35,722 nucleotides of DNA from Megasphaera sp. Its GTDB lineage: Bacteria > Bacillota > Negativicutes > Veillonellales > Megasphaeraceae. The translations under genes and the position numbers were made by a program. Positions 14,814 through 31,973 of the stretch are shown here, piece by piece. The notes beneath the pieces were generated by a model. The model had not been told where the DNA came from. It ran no database searches and worked only from the letters and a program-made list of their open reading frames with translations. Every line of letters starts with the position of its first letter. The stretch's first letter is position 1. The stretch lies in contig JALCNL010000016.1 in the NCBI GenBank assembly GCA_022649055.1, forward strand, positions 1-35,722, read 5' to 3'.

Positions 14814-16946
14814 CTATTTTGCAAATATACTCGGTTTTCCCTCTACATCACTGCAAGTCGTATTGCAATCAGGTTCGCTGCATACCCAATAGCGGCCATA
14901 GGAACTCGTGCGGCAAATAAAATACCCATTATGACAGCGAGGACATTTATATTTTTTTTCTGCTTCTTGTAAGGGAGCTGTCACTTGTTCTGTATAGCGG
15001 CATTGCGGGTACATGGTACAGCCGAAAAAATCACCATATTTACCATGCCGCAACACCATGGCAGCGCCGCATTGCGGACATATTTTTTGATCTTTATTCG
15101 TATCATTACTAACAATTTTTACGTCTCTAGCTCTTGCAACAAGTTTTTCTAAAAATGTAATTTGATCCTGCAGAAATGAGGCAAGCTGCTCTTTACCTTC
15201 ACTCATTTTATATAACCGATCTTCCCAAACAGCAGTTTCATCGGGATATACCATTTCATCAGGTAACGCATCTACAAGCAGATATGCGTTATCTGTCGGT
15301 TTTAAATATCTTTTCTTGCCTTCTTCTACTAAGAATTTTCGTTTTATCAATTCATCAATAATAGTAGCCCGTGTTGCTTCTGTGCCGATTCCCTGCACCT
15401 CTTTTAGTTTTTTCTTTAAAGAATCATCTTTAACATATTTATAAATTTCCTTCATTGCCGCCAGCAGTGTGGATGGTGTAAAGTGTGGCGGCGGCTTTGT
15501 CGTTTTCTTATCCACATGCCCTTCTTTGTAGTCAACAACATCACCTTTTTTTACAACAGGCAATCCATCATCGCTCTCTTCCTCCTCGGCGTCATTCTTA
15601 TCAGATGTATATAGTTCTTTCCATCCCGATACAGTAATTGCTTTTCCGTGAGCCACAAACGTTTCTGATGCCGCTGCAACGAGTATGCGAGTCTGGTCAT
15701 ATTCATACAACGGATAAAATTGTGCAATGTATGCCTGCGCAATAAGATAATAAATATGCTGCTGCAGTGATGTCAATTTAGAAAAATCACAAAAAACCGT
15801 CGTGGGAATAATGGCATGGTGCGCCGTGATTTTACTATCGTTCCATGCCCTGCTTTTAATAGAAAGATCAGCCTTTTCAGCCCACTCTGACAATTTTCCG
15901 GCATGGTTGCTTTGTAAGTTACGTATAATAGAAGAACGATCTTTCCATTGATTACATGGCAGATATTCACAATCAGAGCGAGGATATGTCGTAAGTTTTC
16001 GTTCATAAAGCTGCTGTGCTGCATCCAGTACCTGCTGCGGATCATATCCATAGCGTTTGCCTGCTAAAACCTGCAGTGAGGACAATGATAAGGGAAGGCG
16101 CTGCGCTTCCTTCTTTTTTGTTTTTTTTCGTTCTTGAATGACTCCTGATGGGTTATTGTGTAACCGATCAATAAGTGCCTGCGCTGCTTTTTCTTCAATA
16201 ACATGTCCCTCAGAATCCATCCCTGTTTGCGTATCCTTCGGCTGCCACTGCGCAGTAATCCTTCCGTTGGCATGAATAAACACAGCCTTTACAATAAAAT
16301 ACTCGACAGGAACAAAATGATCCAGTTCCCGCTGGCGTCGCACAACCAGTGCCAATGTCGGAGTTTTGACTCTGCCGATAGGAAAAACAACGCGATGGCC
16401 CTGCCGTCGTGCGGCCAATGTATATGCCCGTGATAAATTCATCCCAATGAGCCAGTCCGCACGGCTGCGAGCCAGTGCGGATTCTTTCAAGTGGAGAAAA
16501 TCGGAATTATTCCGCAGATCCGCCAAAGATTCCTTAATGCTCTTTTCATCAAGCGCATTCAAAAGAATCCGTTGTACCGGTTTGGTGTTCCCTACATAAT
16601 CCAATATTTCATCAATTAAAAGCTGACCTTCTCTATCCGGATCTCCTGCATTAATAATGCTGTCCGCTTGAGTAATCAGATTGCAAATCGTTTGAAATTG
16701 TTCTTTACTGTCCGGGCTGACCAGCAGTTTCCATTCTTCCGGCACAATCGGCAAATCTTCCGCTTTCCATGTTTTATACTTTATATCATAATCCTGTGGT
16801 TCTGCCTGCTGCAATACATGACCGTAAGCCCAAGTAACAATACCGTCTCCGGTTTCAATAAATCCTTTTTTCTTGTGCTGCGGCGGTGGCAGACATTTGG
16901 CTAATTCCCGAGCCATACTCGGTTTCTCTGCAATAAAGATACGCAA
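14814..16946 (-). CDS. topB: DNA topoisomerase III (type IA)
   Basis: A type IA topoisomerase that cuts one strand, probably decatenating recombination and replication intermediates. The 710-residue protein has the TOPRIM domain (IAEKPSMA with E7; AGDPDREGQ), the domain with RVKTPTLALVV, and the active tyrosine in LTTYPRSDC (Y321). The C-terminal region has two zinc-ribbon cysteine sets (CPQC...CTMYPQC and CPRC...CSEPDC), more typical of TopA tails; many Firmicute TopB proteins carry one. The start is taken as the TTG at 16946 (MRIFIAEKPS), nine bases after AGGAG; another TTG nine bases upstream abuts the site. It follows the OLD nuclease gene by 37 bases, same strand, so co-transcription is likely. 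Confidence 0.93.
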   Translation of the reverse strand: MRIFIAEKPSMARELAKCLPPPQHKKKGFIETGDGIVTWAYGHVLQQAEPQDYDIKYKTWKAEDLPIVPEEWKLLVSPDSKEQFQTICNLITQADSIINAGDPDREGQLLIDEILDYVGNTKPVQRILLNALDEKSIKESLADLRNNSDFLHLKESALARSRADWLIGMNLSRAYTLAARRQGHRVVFPIGRVKTPTLALVVRRQRELDHFVPVEYFIVKAVFIHANGRITAQWQPKDTQTGMDSEGHVIEEKAAQALIDRLHNNPSGVIQERKKTKKKEAQRLPLSLSSLQVLAGKRYGYDPQQVLDAAQQLYERKLTTYPRSDCEYLPCNQWKDRSSIIRNLQSNHAGKLSEWAEKADLSIKSRAWNDSKITAHHAIIPTTVFCDFSKLTSLQQHIYYLIAQAYIAQFYPLYEYDQTRILVAAASETFVAHGKAITVSGWKELYTSDKNDAEEEESDDGLPVVKKGDVVDYKEGHVDKKTTKPPPHFTPSTLLAAMKEIYKYVKDDSLKKKLKEVQGIGTEATRATIIDELIKRKFLVEEGKKRYLKPTDNAYLLVDALPDEMVYPDETAVWEDRLYKMSEGKEQLASFLQDQITFLEKLVARARDVKIVSNDTNKDQKICPQCGAAMVLRHGKYGDFFGCTMYPQCRYTEQVTAPLQEAEKKYKCPRCHNGYFICRTSSYGRYWVCSEPDCNTTCSDVEGKPSIFAK

Positions 16947-16983
16947 CGTACGCAACTCCTATTTCTCAATACATAGACTATAT

Positions 16984-18651
16984 TCAACACTCTTGATTCG
17001 AATCAACTTTAGCTAATTGTCCGGCAACTTTAATTACCCGGGTAAAAGAAGGCGGTATTTCTTGTTTTGTAAGAGATTGCCCAATAAGGCGGCCTAAAAT
17101 AACCCCTTTATTACTATACAACCAAGCAAAATAATACACATACATTGTTTCTACATTGCGGGGATTTACATTTTCCAGCATCCTCGGCGGATAATTATGG
17201 TAATTAATGTCCAGCTTACGGCAAGCCTTTTTAAGCATATCCGCCGTTGCTTTGCCATGGACCCCGCCCGCGGTATAAATAATATGATCTAAACTCCGTC
17301 GCTTGCCCTTATCAATCATCGCTTTTACAAGATCCATTTCAAAACAAATTTCGTCTGTAAAGAAAACATTTTTTTCCGCCTCACGGCTGCCTTTTACATC
17401 GGCATCATAAAGTGCAACCGTAGGTATTCTAAAATACTGCAGTAATTTTTTGATTTTAGATATAGAGCTTTCCCCACGCGCATTGATAAGACAAATACCA
17501 TAATAATCAAAACGCAAGTCCAATGTCGTACCAAAAAGCTGAAAGCATCCATATTCCGTTTCCCCTTCAACAATAATAACGCTGCGCGAGTACAACGCTT
17601 CTTTAACTTCCGGGAAATGCATAATCAGATGTTTTTCTATTTCTTCATTGAAGTGAAAATTTACACCGCAGGCAGCCTGAACACAACCACCGTTATTTCT
17701 GTAAAAGCGAATGATATTACGATAATCATCAACCAGTGAATCTGTCGAATGTGTAACAATAAACAATTGTCCACGCAGTCCATCTATATTAAACAATGAT
17801 TTCAGAATGCCGCAAAAAGCCGGATCTTCATTCTGCAACAATTGTTTATAATATGTCAAAATAGATCGCTGCATATAGGGATGCAAATGTATTTCCGGTT
17901 CATCTATTGCCACAAATATAGACAAGAATCGTTTTCCCCTGCTGTCTACAATGATCGTATGTTCAAAAGGAACGGCTTTACTATGATACATTACATATAT
18001 GTGAGATAAAATCTTTAAGGCTACAAGAGATATAAATTTCAAATTATCCGCTCTGGGCCGATCCTGACGGCTTAACAATTTAGACAGCACCAATACGTTC
18101 ATATAAAAAGAAGTGTCATATTCACTATACCGTTCCTGTTGTTGAATGAATTGAGCCATATCGGGGGAAGGCCTGAATTCCTCGATTTGTCCGCTTTTAA
18201 GTATATTATTTTTTAACAAATTATATATTTCGTCAGAAACAAGATAGTCGTCGTTTCGCGTTTCTGAATGATAAATATATCGGATACGTCGAATTAAATC
18301 AAGCGGCAGTTGTGAATTATCTGCATCATTGTACAGGCGCGGAAAGATTTCATCTACTCGTTTTTCCATACGCAAGCGCACCTGTGCCGGCACCCCTTCT
18401 TTACTATCAGAAAAATGTTCTGATGCATCATCCAACAAACATATTTCAACAATAATCACAATCGGAAGATTTGTATCAGCATAGTCATGTTCTAAAATGC
18501 CGAAACCGGAACTTATCAGCGATAACAACCGCAAAAAACTGCTCTTGCCAATATTATTTTCTCCCACGAGATAATTTGCTCTTTCATGAAAGTTCAGTTC
18601 TACATCTTTAAATAAACGGTAATTCTGTAAACGCATATACTTTATATACAC
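16984..18651 (-). CDS. OLD-family ATPase / TOPRIM nuclease, stand-alone
   Basis: An overcoming-lysogenization-defect (OLD) family protein: an ABC-like ATPase fused to a TOPRIM nuclease. The N-terminal KYMRLQNYRLF leads to Walker A GENNIGKS (30-37); Walker B is FVAIDEPEIHLHP (D250, E251), followed by FIVTHSTDSL. The TOPRIM half starts at IIVEGETEYGCF (E362, E364, E366) and has the DxD pair in ALYDADVKGS (D416, D418). Start: the GTG at 18651 (MYIKYMRL) five bases after GGGTG; a TTG 18 bases upstream lacks a site. No UvrD-like partner lies beside it, so it is a class 1 OLD, not a complete Gabija pair. OLD relatives act in phage defence or DNA repair; which applies here is not shown. It precedes topB by 37 bases. 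Confidence 0.85.
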   Translation of the reverse strand: MYIKYMRLQNYRLFKDVELNFHERANYLVGENNIGKSSFLRLLSLISSGFGILEHDYADTNLPIVIIVEICLLDDASEHFSDSKEGVPAQVRLRMEKRVDEIFPRLYNDADNSQLPLDLIRRIRYIYHSETRNDDYLVSDEIYNLLKNNILKSGQIEEFRPSPDMAQFIQQQERYSEYDTSFYMNVLVLSKLLSRQDRPRADNLKFISLVALKILSHIYVMYHSKAVPFEHTIIVDSRGKRFLSIFVAIDEPEIHLHPYMQRSILTYYKQLLQNEDPAFCGILKSLFNIDGLRGQLFIVTHSTDSLVDDYRNIIRFYRNNGGCVQAACGVNFHFNEEIEKHLIMHFPEVKEALYSRSVIIVEGETEYGCFQLFGTTLDLRFDYYGICLINARGESSISKIKKLLQYFRIPTVALYDADVKGSREAEKNVFFTDEICFEMDLVKAMIDKGKRRSLDHIIYTAGGVHGKATADMLKKACRKLDINYHNYPPRMLENVNPRNVETMYVYYFAWLYSNKGVILGRLIGQSLTKQEIPPSFTRVIKVAGQLAKVDSNQEC

Positions 18652-18681
18652 ATTATCACCCACTTTCAATCAGGATTCTTA

Positions 18682-20185: not shown

Positions 20186-23100
20186 TCATCTCCCGTGCTG
20201 TTTGCACAAGAATGCAAGTCTCTGTGCTAATTCCCCTGTGAGTTGTTCTTTTTTTACCTGCCATAACCATTGTCCATGACTGATACCGGGACGATTCATG
20301 CGGCAGGCTGACGGCAAGCACAATACATCTTGCAGGGGAACTATAATGGTTTTCGCTCGCCGGCTGTACACATACGACACAAAAGACCATACAATTTCTT
20401 CTGCCGAAGCATTTTCCTCTAATCCCAAAGAATTTTTCATCTGTTCCTGCTGATATCTATCCAGTTCTTCTGTATACCATCCGAGCAACGTATTATTGTC
20501 ATGTGTACCTGTATAAGCAACGCAATTAGGTTCCGTATCAAAACTATACCGTCCATCGGATCGATATTTCATATGGAACTGTAAAATTTTCATCCCCGGA
20601 ATACCCAGTTTATTCTTTAATTCACAAACATCATCCGTTATAAATCCTAAGTCTTCGGCTATTAATTGGATGTTAGGAATTTTTTTGTATATGGCTCGAA
20701 ACAGGTCAATCCCGGGACCGGGATTCCATTTTCCGTCTCTGGCAGTGTGCGCTCCGGCAGGAATTGCCCAGCAAGATGCAAATCCACGAAAATGATCAAT
20801 ACGTATTTCATCCACCATAGCTGCCATACGTTGAAATCTCTTGATCCACCATTCGTAATGATCCGCAGCTATAGTATCCCACCGATACAATGGATTTCCC
20901 CAAACTTGTCCATCGGCAGAAAAATAATCGGGAGGAACTCCTGCTACGTGACGCAAACACCCCTGTTCATCCAAATCGAAGAAAGTTTGATGAGCCCAGC
21001 AGTCCACACTGTCATGCGCAACAAAGATTGGTATGTCACCTAAAATTGCAATATCTTTGCTTGCGGCATATTGCCGTACTTCCTGCCATTGTATGTGAAA
21101 AATATATTGCATAAATTTATTATGGGATAGGGTGCCCGATAATTCTTTTTTATAGTGCGCAATAGCTGCGGCATCATGGTTTCGTATATCATCCGGCCAT
21201 TGGATCCATGAATTTCCTTGATAAAAATCATGGATTGCCGAAAACAAAGCATACTCCTCAAGCCAATCCGCATTATCTTGACAGAATGCCGCAAAATCAT
21301 TCCAAGGAATTACTAAATCAGGATCATGTGACATATCCCATAAACACATCTTTTTGCACTGCCATTTTTCTTCGTATGTATGGGCCTGCAATATTTGCCG
21401 TTTAAATTCCAAAAAACGCTTTTCTTTCAACCATCCCCAATCTACCAGCTTATCCAATGAAATCAATCGTTCATTTCCGGCAAAAGCAGACATAGATACA
21501 TAGGGTGAATTCCCTTCTCCCGGCAGTGTAAGCGGTAAAATTTGCCATACTTTCTGACCTGCTTGATAGAGAAAATCAATAAACTGCATTGCTCCGTTTC
21601 CTAAATCCCCCATACCATAGTCGGAAGGAAAAGAAGTGGGATGACATAAGATTCCAGCCCTTTTTTGTTTCGCTTCATCAATTCCTTTCAGCACAGTGAT
21701 TCCAAGGGGAGGCAAGGTTACCGTAAAACGACTGTTCACTGTGCAGATAGGTGCTCTGTTGGGTTCAAAAGCATCATACAAATTACCATAAGCCAATCCA
21801 TCTGTATAAATGCTGATAGATCGTATTGCAGTGGTATTCCGATTCATGACGATAATAAAAAAACCATCTTCTGCTTTTTTCCCAAATACGTCAGTTCCTC
21901 CTTCAATACTGCGGGCATATGCATAAATATCGCCATTCCCGTAGAGAGGAATAAACCGCCCAGTCCGTAAGGCGTCATTATGACACCGCAATGCAGTCAG
22001 CTGTACATACCACTCTAAGATACGATTGTTTTCATTCCCCCAGGGATAGGTTCTGCGATTATCGGGATCGACATCGCCTAGTACGCCTGCTTCGTCCCCA
22101 TAATAAATGCAAGGTGCGCCAGGCATCGTCATCTGCCATGTACAAAGGATTTTAAGCCGGGCTTCTGATTTTTCCGAAACTGTCAACACATCTGTTTCTC
22201 CACCTGTGCCGAGAATGGATAAAATCCGCTTTACATCATGACTGCCGAGAAGATTCAACATAGCATAAAAATTTTCCTGCGGATAATTTTCCATCTGATG
22301 ATATACTTCTTCTGCCGTACGTCGGCCATCTTTATGTTCCAAAATAAAATCTATCATAATCGCACGCAAAGCATAATTCATGGCACTGTCCATATCCTTG
22401 CCGCAAAGATATTCCCGTTGTTCTCCATAGCTTATTTTATTCGACGCATCTTCCCACACTTCACCGACCAGAACAGCCTGGGGATTTTCTTTTTTCAGTG
22501 TATGATAAAATTTTCGCAAAAAAGTTTCTGGAAGTTCATCGATAACATCAAGACGCCAGCCGCTGATTCCTTGCTGCAACCAATAGTGAAGAACACTATC
22601 TTTATTATTAATAATGAAGTTCAAATAGGAAGGTGTCATTTCATCTACATCGGGAAGATCTTTTACACCCCACCACGATTCATATTCGTCAGGATAATCG
22701 GTGAATTTATACCAATTGTAATACGGTGATTGTTTCGATTGATACGCTCCTATTTCAGGATAATGTCCAAATTTATTAAAATATATACTATCTTCCCCTG
22801 TATGGTTGAATACACCATCCAAAATAATATGTATGCCTTTTTTTTCAGCGTCTGCACACAATTGGGAAAATTCTTCATTTGTTCCCAACATAGGGTCAAT
22901 ATGATAATAATCTGCCGTGTCATATCGATGATTACTGCTGCTTTCAAAAATAGGATTTAAGTATACAGCTGTTACATGCAGCATCTTGAGATAATCTAAT
23001 TTTTCCTTGATTCCCGCCAAGTTGCCGCCAAAAAAATCATATTGCAAAACATTTCCTTGATTATCCTTGCAATAATGCGGTATATCATTCCAGTCACTGT

Positions 23101-23584
23101 GTATGACAGCTCCTTTTTTGCCAAAAAGTTTTGCAGTCTGTGATTGACTCCGGCAAAACCGATCAGGAAATATTTGATATACAATCGCATTTTTAAACCA
23201 ATCCGGCGTATGAATACCCTTGTCATAAACAGTAATTTGGTATGATGGCGGCTCTTGTGTATACACAGCACCTACCCCGCCAAGTTGGTGTTTATTATTA
23301 CCATAATATACTGTGTTTCCTTGATATCGGACAATAAAATAATACCATAAAAGCGTGCCTTCTTCAGGCATGGTGATTTCCGCTTCATAAAATCCGCCTT
23401 TTTCTGCCATGGGGATTTTATATTCTCCTTCATTGCTTTTCCAAGTACGCAACGTAATACAACAGGTATTTTCATTTTTTATATTGGCAGAAATCCGTAA
23501 TATAAGTTTTTTACCTGCACGGACAGCACCAAATATTGATTTATATACCGGATTCCGTGAATCATGATATAAATATGGCTCCAT
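20186..23584 (-). CDS. GH13 alpha-amylase/debranching enzyme fused to GH77 4-alpha-glucanotransferase
   Basis: One 1132-residue chain carries two complete enzymes. Residues 1-125 look like an N-terminal beta domain of neopullulanase/maltogenic type. Residues 130-630 are a GH13 barrel with nucleophile D346 (GWRLDVID), acid E375 (LVGEVWED) and D450 (LGSHD). Residues 641-1132 are a GH77 (MalQ-like) domain starting KRAGILCHPTSFPSDYGMGDLG, with D930 (EIRIDHFRG), E977 (LIAEDLG) and D1029 (TGTHDN). All six catalytic residues are present, so neither half looks dead. Only about ten residues separate the halves, and there is no frameshift. The ATG at 23584 has AAAGGAG upstream. As last gene of the glg operon it probably trims limit dextrins or maltodextrins and reshuffles the glucans, replacing a separate GlgX and MalQ. 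Precise bond specificity is unproven. Confidence 0.92.
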   Translation of the reverse strand: MEPYLYHDSRNPVYKSIFGAVRAGKKLILRISANIKNENTCCITLRTWKSNEGEYKIPMAEKGGFYEAEITMPEEGTLLWYYFIVRYQGNTVYYGNNKHQLGGVGAVYTQEPPSYQITVYDKGIHTPDWFKNAIVYQIFPDRFCRSQSQTAKLFGKKGAVIHSDWNDIPHYCKDNQGNVLQYDFFGGNLAGIKEKLDYLKMLHVTAVYLNPIFESSSNHRYDTADYYHIDPMLGTNEEFSQLCADAEKKGIHIILDGVFNHTGEDSIYFNKFGHYPEIGAYQSKQSPYYNWYKFTDYPDEYESWWGVKDLPDVDEMTPSYLNFIINNKDSVLHYWLQQGISGWRLDVIDELPETFLRKFYHTLKKENPQAVLVGEVWEDASNKISYGEQREYLCGKDMDSAMNYALRAIMIDFILEHKDGRRTAEEVYHQMENYPQENFYAMLNLLGSHDVKRILSILGTGGETDVLTVSEKSEARLKILCTWQMTMPGAPCIYYGDEAGVLGDVDPDNRRTYPWGNENNRILEWYVQLTALRCHNDALRTGRFIPLYGNGDIYAYARSIEGGTDVFGKKAEDGFFIIVMNRNTTAIRSISIYTDGLAYGNLYDAFEPNRAPICTVNSRFTVTLPPLGITVLKGIDEAKQKRAGILCHPTSFPSDYGMGDLGNGAMQFIDFLYQAGQKVWQILPLTLPGEGNSPYVSMSAFAGNERLISLDKLVDWGWLKEKRFLEFKRQILQAHTYEEKWQCKKMCLWDMSHDPDLVIPWNDFAAFCQDNADWLEEYALFSAIHDFYQGNSWIQWPDDIRNHDAAAIAHYKKELSGTLSHNKFMQYIFHIQWQEVRQYAASKDIAILGDIPIFVAHDSVDCWAHQTFFDLDEQGCLRHVAGVPPDYFSADGQVWGNPLYRWDTIAADHYEWWIKRFQRMAAMVDEIRIDHFRGFASCWAIPAGAHTARDGKWNPGPGIDLFRAIYKKIPNIQLIAEDLGFITDDVCELKNKLGIPGMKILQFHMKYRSDGRYSFDTEPNCVAYTGTHDNNTLLGWYTEELDRYQQEQMKNSLGLEENASAEEIVWSFVSYVYSRRAKTIIVPLQDVLCLPSACRMNRPGISHGQWLWQVKKEQLTGELAQRLAFLCKQHGR

Positions 23585-23606
23585 GTTCAGAACTCCTTTT
23601 TCTAAA

Positions 23607-23643
23607 ATACCCCTACCATATGTGTAATTTGGTCAAGGGGTAT
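23607..23643 (-). other. Hairpin between glgA and the GH13-GH77 gene
   Basis: ATACCCC (minus strand, 23637-23643) pairs with GGGGTAT (23607-23613), and ACCA/TGGT may extend it inside the loop. Four bases TTTT follow, ending about 20 bases before the next start. It could be a partial terminator or an RNA-processing stem that adjusts expression of the last operon gene relative to glgA. Confidence 0.5.
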
Positions 23644-23652
23644 CAATCCATT

Positions 23653-25095
23653 TCATCCTCTATCTAACATATTAATATACAATTCTTCGTATCTATCAGC
23701 CGACTTACGCCAGCCGTATTTGCTTGTCATCGCATTATGAACGAGATACTTCCATAAATGAGAATCGGCATAATAACTTAACGCTCGTTTCACTGTAAAC
23801 AATAATTCATGGGCATTAAAATTTTGAAAATTTAATCCGTTTCCTGTATTCGTATATTTGTCAAAAGGAATAATCGTATCTTTTAATCCTCCTGTTTCTC
23901 TGACAACAGGAATAGTTCCATATTTCAAAGCAATAAGTTGACTCAGTCCACAAGGTTCATATCGTGAGGGCATGATAAATAAATCTGCCGCTGCATATAC
24001 ACAATGAGCTAATCCTTCATCAAAAAGAATATTTGCCGAAACTTTTGTCGGATTATGCTGGGCTAAATGACGAAACCCCTCCTCATACGGCCAATCGCCA
24101 GTACCTAAAATAATGAGCTGTACCTCTTCCATCATCAATTCATCCATAATACGCATTATTAAATCCATCCCCTTATCTTCAATAAGACGGGATACAATAG
24201 CAAGCATAGGAATATTACGATTGACGGGAAGTCCCAGACGTTCCTGCAAAGATTCTTTATTAGCAGCTTTACGGCTGAACACGTTGCTTTTGGTATAGGT
24301 AAAAGGAATAAACGGATCTTTTGCCGGATTATATATTGTTTCATCAAGCCCATTGATAATCCCGGTCAGTCTATGCTTACACAGGCGAATATAGCTATCC
24401 AACTTTTCGCCAAAATAAGGGTATGCAATTTCTTGTGCGTATGTCTGACTCACGGTAGTAATATGATCAGCGTACACCATACCGGCTTTCATATAATTAA
24501 CACATCCGTCACATTCAAGATTTCCGTTATCAAAAAGTTTTCGCGGCAACCCCATTATATCCTCTACTACAGATGGAGAAAATATCCCTTGATATTTTAA
24601 ATTATGGATCGTATAAACAACTTTCATATTTTTATAATAAGAATCTCGATAAAAGTCTTCTTTTAGAAAAACACCGATAAGGCCTGTATGCCAATCATTA
24701 CAGTGAATGATATCCGGCTGAAATCCGATTTTTGGCAGCATTGCCAAAACTGCCCGGCTATAATACGCAAACCGTTCTGCATCATCATCAAAACCATACA
24801 AACGATCTCGTTTAAAATATTGTTCATTATCAATAAAATAAACGGTCATTCCACTCTTTTCAATTTTTTCAACGCCATAATATAATTGACGCCAAGCTAA
24901 ATTTACAACACCATGGTACACTTCCTGCATTTCATCGTTGTAAGAATCGGGAATTTGGCTATATTTAGGAATCACCAGACGAACATCCATTCCCTTAGAT
25001 GCCAATACGTTTGGCAATGCGCCCATAACATCTGCTAACCCGCCGGTTTTAACAAATGGCACTGCTTCAGAAGCAACAAATAAAACTTTAATCAT
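23653..25095 (-). CDS. glgA: Glycogen synthase (ADP-glucose dependent)
   Basis: GlgA adds glucose from ADP-glucose to the non-reducing end of alpha-1,4 glucan (GT5 family). The 480-residue protein has the N-terminal VLFVASEAVPFVKTGGLADV with the ADP-glucose-binding KTGGL motif at 16-20, FHxNDWH-type sequence IIHCNDWHTGL, TIHNLKYQGIF, and the C-terminal PSRYEPCGLSQLIALKYGTIPVVRETGGL nucleotide-binding region. Length is normal for bacteria. The start is the ATG at 25095, six bases after AGAGGTG; a GTG nine bases upstream lies inside that site. It follows glgB after 75 bases and precedes the fusion enzyme, with a hairpin between. Confidence 0.97.
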   Translation of the reverse strand: MIKVLFVASEAVPFVKTGGLADVMGALPNVLASKGMDVRLVIPKYSQIPDSYNDEMQEVYHGVVNLAWRQLYYGVEKIEKSGMTVYFIDNEQYFKRDRLYGFDDDAERFAYYSRAVLAMLPKIGFQPDIIHCNDWHTGLIGVFLKEDFYRDSYYKNMKVVYTIHNLKYQGIFSPSVVEDIMGLPRKLFDNGNLECDGCVNYMKAGMVYADHITTVSQTYAQEIAYPYFGEKLDSYIRLCKHRLTGIINGLDETIYNPAKDPFIPFTYTKSNVFSRKAANKESLQERLGLPVNRNIPMLAIVSRLIEDKGMDLIMRIMDELMMEEVQLIILGTGDWPYEEGFRHLAQHNPTKVSANILFDEGLAHCVYAAADLFIMPSRYEPCGLSQLIALKYGTIPVVRETGGLKDTIIPFDKYTNTGNGLNFQNFNAHELLFTVKRALSYYADSHLWKYLVHNAMTSKYGWRKSADRYEELYINMLDRG

Positions 25096-25170
25096 AGGTA
25101 ACACCTCTTTTCAAAAATTTTCTATGATTGAAATTTTAAAGAATTATTGTATGTACTATCACATTATTCT

Positions 25171-27110: not shown

Positions 27111-29549
27111 CTACGTACTTTCAACAGGTTTAATATGCCAAATATCACGTGCATATTGCCGAATCGTCCGATCACTGGAAAAAAATCCCGAATGTGCTAT
27201 ATTTACGGCACTAGACTGAAGCCATTTATAGTGATTTTGATAACGGCAGCCGATATTTTTCTGTGCCTCGCAATACGAATCAAAATCTTTCAGCACAAAA
27301 TATTCATCATTTCGATCCAAAAGAGAATCATATAACATTTGGAAAGCATAATTGCCGTTTCCCAACGAACCATCTACTAAATGTGTCAAAAGCATGCGAA
27401 TGTGCTCATTTGTACGATATAAATCCCAAGATGAATATCCGCCGTGAACATAATACTTCATCACTTCATCGGCCCGCAGTCCAAAAATAACACAGTTATC
27501 GTCACCTACTTCATGATGAATTTCTACGTTAGCGCCATCCATAGTCCCTAATGTAATAGCTCCATTCATCATAAACTTCATATTGCCGGTTCCGGAAGCT
27601 TCTTTACCGGCCGTAGAAATTTGTTCGCTTACATCGGCTGCCGGAAATAAAAGTTGAGCTAAAGAAACATTATAATTTTCTAAAAACAGTACTTTTAATT
27701 TTCCCTCCAAACTATGATCCCCATTAATCATTTTACTAACTACATTAATGAGTTTAATCGTCATTTTTGCTTCGCCATACCCTGCCGCAGCTTTTCCGCC
27801 AAATAAATATGTGCGCGGAACGATATCCATGTTCGGATTCTCTTTTAATGCATAATACAGATTGAGAATATGGAGAATATTCAACAGTTGACGCTTATAC
27901 AGATGGAATCGTTTAATTTGTATATCAAATACAGACTCTGTATCAATTTGCTGTCCATATTCCGTTCTGATATAGGATGCAAGTATATTTTTGCGTGTTC
28001 TTTTTACTTGATCCAATTGTTCCAGAAAAGCAGCATCTGATGCATATGCTGCTAGATTTATCATATGTTCGGGATGTTTACGCCATGTATTTCCGATAGC
28101 TGAATCGATAAGCTGTGCCAGCTGTGGATTGGACTGAATCAACCATCGCCGATGAGACACTCCGTTTGTCTTATTATTGAAACGTTCGGGAAAGCAGCTA
28201 TAGAATGCATGCAACGTAGATTCCTTCAATATTTGCGAGTGAATTTCCGCCACCCCATTAATACTATGACTTCCCAATACGGCAAGATGAGCCATATGAA
28301 CCTGATTATCCCAAAGGATAGCCACTTCACGCGCTTTTGCCTCATCGCCGGGATTTTTATTCCGTACCTGCTGCAGCCATCGCTTGTTTAATTCTTCTAT
28401 GATTAAATAGATGCGCGGCAGTAATTCTTTAAACAGGGGAATGGACCAGCGCTCCATTGCTTCCGGCAAAATAGTATGATTGGTATAGGCTACAACTTCC
28501 GTGGTAATATCCCATGCCGTTTCCCACGGCAGCCCTTCTTCGTCCATAAAAATCCGCATTAATTCAGGTATAACCAAAGCGGGATGCGTATCATTGATAT
28601 GAATGGCCACATAGTGCCCAAATACTTTAATATTAGGGCTTATCTTCTGCTTAAAATGCCGGACTATACTTTGGACGCCGGCAGAGACCATAAAGTACTC
28701 CTGCATAAGCCGTAACCTGCGGCCTTCTTCCGTACTGTCTTCCGGATACAAAAAGCGAGAAATAAGCTGTACATTATCTTTATAGCGAAATGCCTCATGT
28801 CGATTTCCTTTGGCCAAGACACGATATACATCTTCTCGGGTATATTCGGCACGCCATAACCGCAATGTATTGACGGTATCATTATGATAGCCAACCATAG
28901 GCACATCATACGGCACAGCACGGACAGAGTGATAATTTTCGTATACGCATTCCAAGTTTCCCTCACCGTCAGGACGCATATACGCATTGCCGCTAAAACA
29001 TACATTGACCGCCTTATCTACTTTCTTCACTTCCCACGGATAGCCATCTACCAGCCAATTATCCGGAAGTTCAACTTGTTGTCCATCCACAATACGTTGA
29101 TTAAACAACCCATATTGATAGCGGATACTACATCCATGACCGGGCAAACGAAGAGCTGCCAAAGAATCTGCAAAACACGCTGCAAGACGGCCTAATCCTC
29201 CATTCCCCAATCCCGGATCTCGTTCTTCCGGTATAATAGCATCCAAATCCCAACCCAAATCATGCAATCCTTCGCGGCAAACTGTTTCCATATCAACACC
29301 AATCAAATTTGACTGCAGTAATCTTCCCAATAAAAATTCAATCGAAAAATAATATACTTGTTTAACTTTCTTTTCTACATACATCTTATTGGTTTTAATC
29401 CAATCTTCACTTATTAAATCACGAATCATAAATGCAACGGTCTGATATACTTCGTTTGGTATAAGGTCGCGCACATCTTTTTCCCATGCTACATGAGATT
29501 TACGAATAAATATTTTTTTGAATTCTTCTTTATCTTTCCATTTCTTCAT
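27111..29549 (-). CDS. glgP: Glycogen/maltodextrin phosphorylase
   Basis: GlgP releases glucose-1-phosphate from glucan ends using phosphate and PLP (GT35). Landmarks are EFLLGRLLQSNLIG, DPGLGNGGLGRLAACFADSLA, HINDTHPAL, NGVSHRRWL, RIxxFHxYKRQLLN-type sequence IKRFHLYKRQLLN, and the PLP site ASGTGNMKFMMNGA with its lysine. At 812 residues it is full length. The start is taken as the ATG at 29549 (MKKWKDKE), seven bases after AGAGG; the frame stays open 14 codons further to a TTG that overlaps glgD and lacks a site. No N-terminal extension suggests allosteric phosphorylation. It sits 19 bases after glgD, so breakdown is co-encoded with synthesis. Confidence 0.96.
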   Translation of the reverse strand: MKKWKDKEEFKKIFIRKSHVAWEKDVRDLIPNEVYQTVAFMIRDLISEDWIKTNKMYVEKKVKQVYYFSIEFLLGRLLQSNLIGVDMETVCREGLHDLGWDLDAIIPEERDPGLGNGGLGRLAACFADSLAALRLPGHGCSIRYQYGLFNQRIVDGQQVELPDNWLVDGYPWEVKKVDKAVNVCFSGNAYMRPDGEGNLECVYENYHSVRAVPYDVPMVGYHNDTVNTLRLWRAEYTREDVYRVLAKGNRHEAFRYKDNVQLISRFLYPEDSTEEGRRLRLMQEYFMVSAGVQSIVRHFKQKISPNIKVFGHYVAIHINDTHPALVIPELMRIFMDEEGLPWETAWDITTEVVAYTNHTILPEAMERWSIPLFKELLPRIYLIIEELNKRWLQQVRNKNPGDEAKAREVAILWDNQVHMAHLAVLGSHSINGVAEIHSQILKESTLHAFYSCFPERFNNKTNGVSHRRWLIQSNPQLAQLIDSAIGNTWRKHPEHMINLAAYASDAAFLEQLDQVKRTRKNILASYIRTEYGQQIDTESVFDIQIKRFHLYKRQLLNILHILNLYYALKENPNMDIVPRTYLFGGKAAAGYGEAKMTIKLINVVSKMINGDHSLEGKLKVLFLENYNVSLAQLLFPAADVSEQISTAGKEASGTGNMKFMMNGAITLGTMDGANVEIHHEVGDDNCVIFGLRADEVMKYYVHGGYSSWDLYRTNEHIRMLLTHLVDGSLGNGNYAFQMLYDSLLDRNDEYFVLKDFDSYCEAQKNIGCRYQNHYKWLQSSAVNIAHSGFFSSDRTIRQYARDIWHIKPVEST

Positions 29550-29568
29550 GCGCATACCTCTCTTTACA

Positions 29569-30681
29569 TCAGATAACCGAATATTTTCCAATACATAAAG
29601 GCATTTGTTTTGTCCCCGTCAGCACAGCTTCTGACTGAATAATTGCATTTTTGTCACAAATAACATAGTTTAGCTGTGCATCATCACCAACGGCAGAGTG
29701 CTGCATAATGATACTGTTACGTATGACCGCATTTTTTCCCACACGGACTTTGCGAAAAAGAATGCTGTTTTCTACCCGGCCTTCAATAATACAGCCATTC
29801 GCTACCAGTGAGTTATTTACAGCGGATTCCTCCATATATTTGGCCGGAGCTTCATCTTTTATTTTTGTATATATCCGCCTTTCTCCATCAAGAAAGAGAC
29901 TGCGCCATTTTTTTACATCCAGTAATTCCATATTCGCATTAAAATACGCAGGAACGGAATGAATACAAGCCGTATAGCCTTGATAATTAAAACCGAAAAC
30001 GCGCAGCCGGTCAATGTTTCTTTTTAAAATATCCGTCAATATGAATTTATACCCTTTGGCATATGCCAGACGGACAGATCGATTAAATATTTCACAATCA
30101 ATCAAGATTCCGCGCATATAGACATTTTCACCGCTTTTCACATGCGTTTTAGGAGTTATCTCCGTAATACGGTCTTTATCATCTGTATCAAGTATATAAA
30201 AATTGCCAGTTATATCTGTTGCCGGGTGGTGATAAATTACAGTCACATCGGCATTATGCCGACGATGGAAATGAAGAACCTTTTCATAGTCTATATTTTG
30301 TACATAGTCACTGCGCGTAATCAGGATATAAGGTTGTACCGCCCGCTCTACAAACGATAAATTATGATAATATGTACGAACATCCCCCTCCATAGGATGA
30401 ATAATATCTTGTGCTTCCAGCGGCAAGTAAAATAAGCCATCTCCCTTGCGGGCCAGATTCCAATCCTTAGCAGAACGTATGTGGTCTAATACAGAACGCG
30501 ATTCTGCAGAAAGAAGAATTCCTATATCCCCGATACCAGCGTTTACCATATTGGATAAAGTAAAATCAATAAGGCGAAATTTTCCGCCAAACGGCATAGT
30601 AGCTAATGGACGTCTTTCATTCAATTCGCGCAGCGGATTATCTTCCTGGAGATTTATCAATCCAATGATTTGGCTGCTCAT
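29569..30681 (-). CDS. glgD: Glucose-1-phosphate adenylyltransferase, GlgD subunit
   Basis: GlgD is the regulatory, usually inactive partner of GlgC in Firmicutes. The 370-residue sequence keeps the nucleotidyltransferase fold ([21 protein letters not shown]) and the left-handed beta-helix end ([35 protein letters not shown]). The N-terminal loop that in GlgC is [10 protein letters not shown] reads [19 protein letters not shown], so the key phosphate-binding glycines and arginine are missing. This fits a subunit that tunes GlgC and does not catalyse by itself. The ATG at 30681 overlaps the glgC stop in ATGA and is preceded by AAGGAGA, so translation is coupled. Confidence 0.94.
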
Positions 30682-31844
30682 GCTATCACGTCTCCTTGTA
30701 TCTGTCCCTCACTCGCTTTTATCTTTTCATCGTTACCGACAACCATTACGGTACCATCGTCATTATGAACAACTGCATTACTTTGAATAATACATCTTTC
30801 GCCAATAATAGCTTTATCTACTACTGCATTTTTTTCAATACTTGTCCCCGGCATTAAAACGGAATTAGTCACCTTTGCACCTTCTTCAATAGTAACACCG
30901 TAAAAAACAACCGAACGTATCACCGTACCTAAAATTTGAGATCCCTCCCCTACAAGAGAGCTTCTGGCACTGCCATGCGGTCCAATGACATGAGGTGGCA
31001 GCGATTGACTGCCGGAATAAATACGCCAATCAGAATTATTCAGATCAAGAGGTGGATCATCGGCTAATAAATCCATATTCGCCTGCCACAAGCTTTCAAT
31101 GGTACCTACATCTTTCCAATATCCTTCAAAAGGATATGCATACAGCGGCAGATTTTGTGACAGCATCGCAGGAATAACATTCTTTCCAAAATCATGTTCT
31201 GAATGTATTTCCTTTGCATCCGCCATTAAATATGTTTTCAGGAGTTTTCGATTAAAAATATAAATTCCCATAGAAGCAAGATTGCTTTCCGGATGTATCG
31301 GCTTCTCCTGAAACTTACGTATTTTCATGTTATCGTCAGTCGTCATAATACCAAAACGGCTGGCATCGCTCCATGGGACACGAATCGTGCCAATAGTAAC
31401 ACCTGCATGATGTTTTTTATGAAATGCCAGCATTTTCGAATAGTCCATGGAATAAATATGATCGCCTGATAATACAAGAACATAATCGGAACCAATCATA
31501 TCCACAAAATTCATATTTTGATAAATAGCGTCAGCCGTTCCATGATACCAATTGGTTCCGTCATCTGTCATATAAGGCGGTAGCACAAAAGTTCCTCCAC
31601 GGTCAGAATCAAGATCCCAAGAACTTCCGTTTCCTACATACCAATTCAGTGCCAACGGTTGATATTGAGTTAAAATGCCGACTGTATCAATGCCGGAATG
31701 ACGGCAATTACTCAATGTAAAGTCAATAATGCGGTACTTTCCGCCAAACAGCAGTCCTGGTTTGGCTTGGTTTTTAGTAAGAACCCCCAAACGGCTTCCT
31801 TTTCCTCCGGCAAGTATCATGGCTAAACAATTAGATTTTCTCAT
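30678..31844 (-). CDS. glgC: Glucose-1-phosphate adenylyltransferase (ADP-glucose pyrophosphorylase), GlgC
   Basis: GlgC makes ADP-glucose from ATP and glucose-1-phosphate, the committed step of glycogen synthesis. The 388-residue protein has the catalytic loop [34 protein letters not shown], the substrate segments [13 protein letters not shown] and FQEKP, and the C-terminal beta-helix with [28 protein letters not shown]. The start is the ATG at 31844, seven bases after AGGAGG; the frame continues 22 codons upstream without any site or family likeness. It is the first gene of glgCDPBA-fusion, so committed synthesis leads the operon, and it overlaps glgD by 4 bases. Confidence 0.97.
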
Positions 31845-31973
31845 AGAATTGCCTCCTGATTCCGAAAGACATACCGACTTGATACACATATTTTTAATTA
31901 TCAACTGCAATATTTGATATTTCCATTCTTCCCTTCTGACTTTTCGGTATTCTTTCCCTGATATATTATTTAA

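What the first reader, a model, noticed from the sequence alone, without database searches (positions are those of the whole stretch)
20186..23584. One polypeptide joins a GH13 debranching/amylase enzyme to a GH77 4-alpha-glucanotransferase
Both halves keep all three catalytic carboxylates (D346/E375/D450 and D930/E977/D1029) and only about ten residues separate them, so it is a true fusion and not a read-through error. Placed last in the glycogen operon, it may pass released oligosaccharides directly from hydrolase to transferase, replacing separate GlgX and MalQ. The N-terminal beta domain suggests maltodextrin or limit-dextrin substrates. Similar fusions may exist in other Negativicutes; I cannot search.
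Basis: partly seen in the sequence, partly recalled or inferred. Interest (0 to 1): 0.62.

Follow-up and report, generated by a model that had tools for sequence, protein, structure and literature searches.

The report
Two-enzyme fusion for breaking down glycogen
This gene makes one protein with two glycogen-breakdown enzymes in a row; the fusion is real, but it is an old, widespread and already catalogued arrangement in anaerobic Firmicutes, whose exact activities appear to be untested.

Summary
Window 20186-23584 (minus strand) is one 1132-codon ORF. It carries a GH13 domain (PF00128, residues 137-503) and a GH77 domain (PF02446, residues 648-1116). About 7 residues join the halves.

It is not an assembly error. 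A congener has the same single ORF (92% identical), both halves are under purifying selection (dN/dS 0.065-0.074), and 210 of 300 genomes of the class match. The architecture is already an NCBIfam model (NF011083), and occurs also in other Clostridia and in Coriobacteriia. Close relatives carry the halves as adjacent genes in the same order, sometimes in frame with a single stop between. The gene is usually last in the glycogen operon.

One correction: despite the database name, the GH13 half is not GlgX. It resembles neopullulanase, maltodextrin glucosidase and the Nostoc debranching enzyme.

In the congener (99% complete) the fusion is the only GH77 protein and, besides GlgB, the only GH13 protein. 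No GH31, GH57 or GH133 protein was found. The GH13 half is therefore the only candidate debranching hydrolase among the families searched. Channelling between the halves is untested. New member of a known kind; moderate interest.

The parts
20186..23584 (-). fused GH13-GH77 gene, 1132 aa
23207..23584 (-). N-terminal beta-sandwich domain (residues 1-126), no Pfam or CBM assignment
   Evidence: AlphaFold2 pLDDT 94.8; Foldseek finds only generic Ig-like folds with E above 0.001; no relevant Pfam hit even at E 10
21962..23206 (-). GH13 catalytic barrel with domain B (residues 127-541); catalytic D346, E375, D450
21683..21961 (-). GH13 C-terminal beta domain (residues 542-634)
   Evidence: secondary structure of the model
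21662..21682 (-). linker, residues 635-641; no in-frame ATG/GTG/TTG between V631 and the GH77 fold
20189..21661 (-). GH77 4-alpha-glucanotransferase domain (residues 642-1132); catalytic D930, E977, D1029; GVPPDYFS loop at 882-889
23653..25104 (-). glgA, glycogen synthase
   Evidence: PF08323
25171..27093 (-). glgB, branching enzyme (CBM48 + alpha-amylase)
27111..29591 (-). glgP, glycogen phosphorylase
   Evidence: PF00343
29569..30681 (-). glgD, ADP-glucose pyrophosphorylase-like subunit
30678..31910 (-). glgC, ADP-glucose pyrophosphorylase
   Evidence: PF00483

Best explanation
The gene encodes a bifunctional enzyme of glycogen breakdown. Inferred mechanism: glycogen phosphorylase (GlgP, same operon) shortens the outer chains to short stubs. 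The GH77 half moves maltosyl or maltotriosyl units from stubs and small maltodextrins onto longer chains, so that GlgP can use them again. The GH13 half, a neopullulanase/maltodextrin-glucosidase-like hydrolase rather than a GlgX isoamylase, hydrolyses the remaining alpha-1,6 branch points and short branched or linear dextrins. In the most complete close relative it is the only candidate for the alpha-1,6 step among the enzyme families searched. The fused gene corresponds to a two-gene pair, GH13 then GH77, at the end of the glg operon, made into one reading frame by loss of the stop; the direction (fusion of a pair, not splitting of a fusion) is inferred. Shown: architecture, intact catalytic residues, operon position, distribution, and absence of alternative debranching enzymes of the families searched. 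Inferred: the activities, the bond specificity and the order of steps.
For: Both domains are intact and invariant at the catalytic carboxylates across 46 diverse sequences, including the GH77 loop GVPPDYFS, nearly invariant. The halves fold as neopullulanase-like GH13 and amylomaltase-like GH77 (TM to target 0.76 and 0.92). The gene is last in the glg operon here and in most loci, across Bacillota and Coriobacteriia. In its own genome the only GH77 is the fusion and the only GH13 proteins are the fusion and GlgB; the 99%-complete congener G001 is the same. No GlgX above cut-off, no GDE_C/GH133 and no GH31 in 27 genomes; no GH57 in its own genome or family. In the 26-genome panel, the five genomes lacking the fusion also lack GlgB and every other GH13 and GH77 protein, so the gene goes with the pathway. 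The nearest PDB relative of the GH13 half is 2wc7 (246 bits), published as the Nostoc punctiforme debranching enzyme (reference 73 in PMC9781549; the link to 2wc7 is my own knowledge). Adjacent unfused pairs exist in the same order, some in frame with a single stop between.
Against: No biochemical test of any member was found in the open-access papers searched. Neopullulanase and cyclomaltodextrinase relatives mainly cut alpha-1,4 bonds (own knowledge), so alpha-1,6 activity may be weak or absent. The GH13 half lacks the neopullulanase signature MPKLN (it has LPDVD; LPNV-E in the family). The window's genome is only 87% complete. GH15, GH97 and other rarer alpha-glucanase families were not searched.
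Confidence: 0.65

Rival explanations
1. The GH13 half is a plain alpha-1,4 maltodextrin hydrolase (maltogenic amylase, cyclomaltodextrinase or maltodextrin glucosidase) and does not debranch. It trims linear dextrins and large-ring cyclic glucans made by the GH77 half. Branch points are removed by an unrecognised enzyme or left.
For: Best curated single-enzyme matches are maltodextrin glucosidase (358.6 bits) and cyclomaltodextrinase (306.6 bits), both below cut-off; closest folds are TVAII and TVAI.
Against: No other debranching-type enzyme of GH13, GH31 or GH133 was found in the fusion-bearing genus, although GlgB makes branches. The best PDB match is a debranching enzyme of this group.
Confidence: 0.25
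2. The protein mainly processes imported maltodextrins rather than the cell's own glycogen.
For: GH77 and maltodextrin glucosidase are the classical enzymes of maltodextrin use in E. coli (own knowledge).
Against: It sits in the glg operon in nearly all loci where the operon is visible and is absent together with GlgB.
Confidence: 0.08
3. Artefact: assembly chimera or missed stop at the junction.
For: None found. Some relatives do have a stop at exactly this junction.
Against: Same fusion in the congener and in hundreds of independent genomes, including isolate genomes such as Selenomonas infelix, Pectinatus haikarae and Sporomusa silvacetica; purifying selection across both halves.
Confidence: 0.01

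Closest known systems
NCBIfam NF011083 / PRK14510 'bifunctional glycogen debranching protein GlgX/4-alpha-glucanotransferase'
   Same: Same order and length (1186-position model); best whole-protein match, 1204.7 bits. A Desulfosporosinus relative with the same architecture scores 1511.6, above the cut-off.
   Different: The window protein is below the curated cut-off of 1322. The GlgX part of the name is not supported by sequence.
Amylomaltase / MalQ / DPE1 (GH77)
   Same: C-terminal half: PF02446 over full length, catalytic triad, 250s loop, TM 0.92 to solved amylomaltases.
   Different: Here covalently joined to a GH13 hydrolase.
Nostoc punctiforme debranching enzyme (2wc7) and the neopullulanase / maltogenic amylase / maltodextrin glucosidase group
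   Same: Nearest solved relatives of the N-terminal half.
   Different: CSR-V is LPDVD instead of MPKLN; N-domain not recognisable as CBM34; extra GH77 half.
amy genes at the end of Lactobacillus glg operons (glgBCDAP-amy-pgm, PMC4282360)
   Same: A GH13-type gene after the glg core genes, as in the unfused Clostridium and Halobacillus relatives found here; homologous GH13 proteins exist in Lactiplantibacillus (39.7% identity; these hits are on plasmids and not shown to be amy itself).
   Different: No GH77 attached.
Eukaryotic glycogen debranching enzyme (GDE/AGL)
   Same: One polypeptide combines a 4-alpha-glucanotransferase and a branch-point hydrolase; works-like comparison only.
   Different: Different hydrolase (GH133 GDE_C there, absent here), reversed order of activities, transferase is GH77 here.

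Membership tests
NF011083 bifunctional GlgX/4-alpha-glucanotransferase | GH13 followed by GH77 in one polypeptide, whole length aligned to the model | tested here: met
NF011083 bifunctional GlgX/4-alpha-glucanotransferase | score above curated cut-off (1322 bits) | tested here: not met
   1204.7 bits; Selenomonas, Propionispira and same-family relatives also fall below, Desulfosporosinus passes
NF011083 bifunctional GlgX/4-alpha-glucanotransferase | both enzymatic activities | not testable with these tools
   needs assay
GH77 4-alpha-glucanotransferase | PF02446 above cut-off, catalytic D/E/D, GVPPDYFS loop | tested here: met
GlgX (TIGR02100, isoamylase type) | score above cut-off | tested here: not met
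   21.6 bits against 640.9; 0 of 27 genomes have a match above cut-off
GlgX (TIGR02100, isoamylase type) | N-terminal CBM48 | tested here: not met
   no CBM48 in the GH13 half or N-domain even at E 10, whereas GlgB in the window has it
Neopullulanase-type GH13 (GH13_20/21) | closest relatives by sequence and fold | tested here: met
Neopullulanase-type GH13 (GH13_20/21) | CSR-V signature MPKLN (PMC9781549) | tested here: not met
   LPDVD here; LPNV-E commonest in the family
Neopullulanase-type GH13 (GH13_20/21) | N-terminal CBM34 | tested here: inconclusive
   domain in the right place and a beta sandwich, but no Pfam or specific fold match
Neopullulanase-type GH13 (GH13_20/21) | CAZy subfamily assignment | not testable with these tools
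   no CAZy library available
Eukaryotic-type GDE | GDE_C (GH133) domain | tested here: not met
   no match in the genome

The most novel reading that the evidence does not exclude
The protein is an obligate two-headed bacterial debranching machine: a convergent counterpart of the eukaryotic debranching enzyme, built from different parts, in which the two active sites are rigidly docked and pass limit-dextrin chains between them, so that the fused form outperforms the separate halves.
Probability: 0.2. Interest if true: 0.5.

Novelty: new member of a known kind. Interest (0 to 1): 0.28.

Why it matters
Glycogen breakdown in a large group of gut and rumen anaerobes seems to rest on one fused enzyme whose database name (GlgX) points to the wrong kind of debrancher. 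If tested, it would tell whether bacteria arrived independently at the same one-protein solution as animals and fungi, with a different hydrolase. The existence of both adjacent-gene and fused forms makes the effect of fusion directly testable.

Tried and rejected
Assembly error or read-through: rejected by the congener, the class-wide conservation and the low omega. GlgX identity of the GH13 half: rejected. Separate translation of the GH77 half from an internal start: no in-frame ATG/GTG/TTG in the linker. A single origin of all fused forms: not settled. The concatenated tree needs 4 state changes and the AU test gives p 0.0146 under LG+G4, but the GH13-only tree under the C20 mixture gives p 0.096. 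In simple-model trees of single halves the fusions of this family sat apart from the Selenomonas-type ones; the mixture and concatenated trees place the Negativicutes fusions together, so I do not claim an independent fusion here. Phage or plasmid carriage: no phage or plasmid record covers 80% of the protein in one place. An Rfam element in the window: none. N-domain as a known carbohydrate-binding module: no specific match.

Full report
Observation. The ORF is real and lies on the minus strand, 20186-23584, 1132 aa with an ATG start and no stop. Pfam finds PF00128 at residues 137-503 and PF02446 at 648-1116. The model has mean pLDDT 91.9 and pTM 0.84; the GH13 C-domain ends at residue 634 and GH77 begins at 642.

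Setting. On the same strand upstream lie glgC, glgD, glgP, glgB and glgA, and the fusion comes last. A gene with malic enzyme domains follows, its start 105 nt beyond the stop. In 80 named public loci and 40 unnamed ones, the fused gene, or its unfused GH13 counterpart, usually stands at or near the end of the glg genes where those are visible.

Is it an accident? No. The other genome of the same genus held here has the fusion at 92% identity. Synonymous changes far outnumber amino-acid changes in both halves (omega 0.074 and 0.065). In the class (Negativicutes, inferred from the named matches: Selenomonas, Mitsuokella, Pectinatus, Propionispira, Sporomusa and Pelosinus) 210 of 300 genomes match at E below 1e-60; most listed matches cover nearly the whole protein in one open frame. 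Outside the class, fusions occur in Desulfosporosinus, Oscillospiraceae, Family XIII, a Lachnospiraceae MAG and in Coriobacteriia such as Collinsella and Olsenella.

Likely origin. Many relatives keep the two halves as neighbouring genes in the same order on the same strand. In six of them the second gene is in frame behind the first: exactly one stop between in L162, L165, L167 and L171, two or three stops in L164 and L169. In others, such as Desulforamulus aeronauticus, the open frames overlap slightly in another frame. Fused and split forms are mixed on the trees: 3 to 4 state changes, with one origin rejected at p 0.0146 on the concatenated tree under LG+G4 but not on the GH13 tree under a mixture model, p 0.096. 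I conclude that fusion or fission probably happened more than once, without certainty, and that the direction cannot be read from the counts.

What the halves are. The GH77 half is a standard amylomaltase by family, motif and fold. The GH13 half is called GlgX in the NCBIfam name, but the GlgX model gives it 21.6 bits against a cut-off of 640.9, less than GlgB gets in the same genome (36.2), and it has no CBM48. By sequence it is nearest to 2wc7, the Nostoc punctiforme debranching enzyme, then to neopullulanase 2, maltogenic amylase and maltodextrin glucosidase, and its fold is nearest to TVAII and TVAI. It does not carry the MPKLN signature of the neopullulanase subfamily (PMC9781549; LPDVD here). 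The N-terminal domain is a confident beta sandwich of no assignable carbohydrate-binding family.

What it likely does. In the genome itself the fusion is the only GH77 protein, and the only GH13 proteins are the fusion and GlgB. The congener, 99% complete, is the same. No GlgX above cut-off, no GH133 and no GH31 protein was found in 27 genomes, and no GH57 in its own genome or family. In the 26-genome panel of relatives, the 21 genomes with GlgB all have the fused protein, and the five without it have no GH13 and no GH77 at all; four genomes of the sister genus carry one further, 558-codon GH13 protein. So in this genus, among the families searched, the GH13 half is the only candidate for removing branch points, and the GH77 half the only glucanotransferase. 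The best model is a two-activity enzyme that, together with GlgP, completes glycogen breakdown. This is inference from anatomy and gene content; I found no assay of any member in the open-access papers searched.

Novelty. The arrangement is already a curated NCBIfam model (NF011083), so the gene is a member of a known kind, though below that model's cut-off. Substrate channelling remains open: the high pTM is compatible with a fixed packing of the halves, but the predicted aligned error was not available.

Noticed in passing
genomes G140, G146, G158, G179, G124, G131: In a sister family of the class (f18; its nearest named relative here is an Acidaminococcaceae MAG, L061) the GH77 half of the fusion lacks or has strongly diverged in a segment, about positions 60-108 of the Pfam profile, while the catalytic residues seen in L030 and L041 remain.
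   Followed up: partly
L024 (genome G134, family f18): This genome's fusion is 57% identical to the window's and groups with the forms of the window's family rather than with its own family, which suggests horizontal transfer or an old duplicate.
   Followed up: partly
G382, G417, G652: Open frames of about 1880 codons contain a GH13 half similar to this one joined to something else, a different large fusion.
   Followed up: no
genome G109, contigs C37 and C49: Two fused copies in one genome, the second (1080-codon frame) with a diverged GH77 half.
   Followed up: no
window 23606-23644, minus strand: A 13-pair hairpin lies between glgA and the fused gene, shortly before its ribosome-binding site; weak support (z -1.53), no Rfam match.
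   Followed up: partly
window 16984-18669, minus strand: An OLD-family protein (AAA ATPase with TOPRIM-like nuclease domain) next to a type IA topoisomerase gene (14814-16955).
   Followed up: no
genomes G007, G009 (1.6-1.8 Mb, same family): Small-genome members of the family lack every GH13 and GH77 protein, so apparently the whole glycogen pathway.
   Followed up: partly
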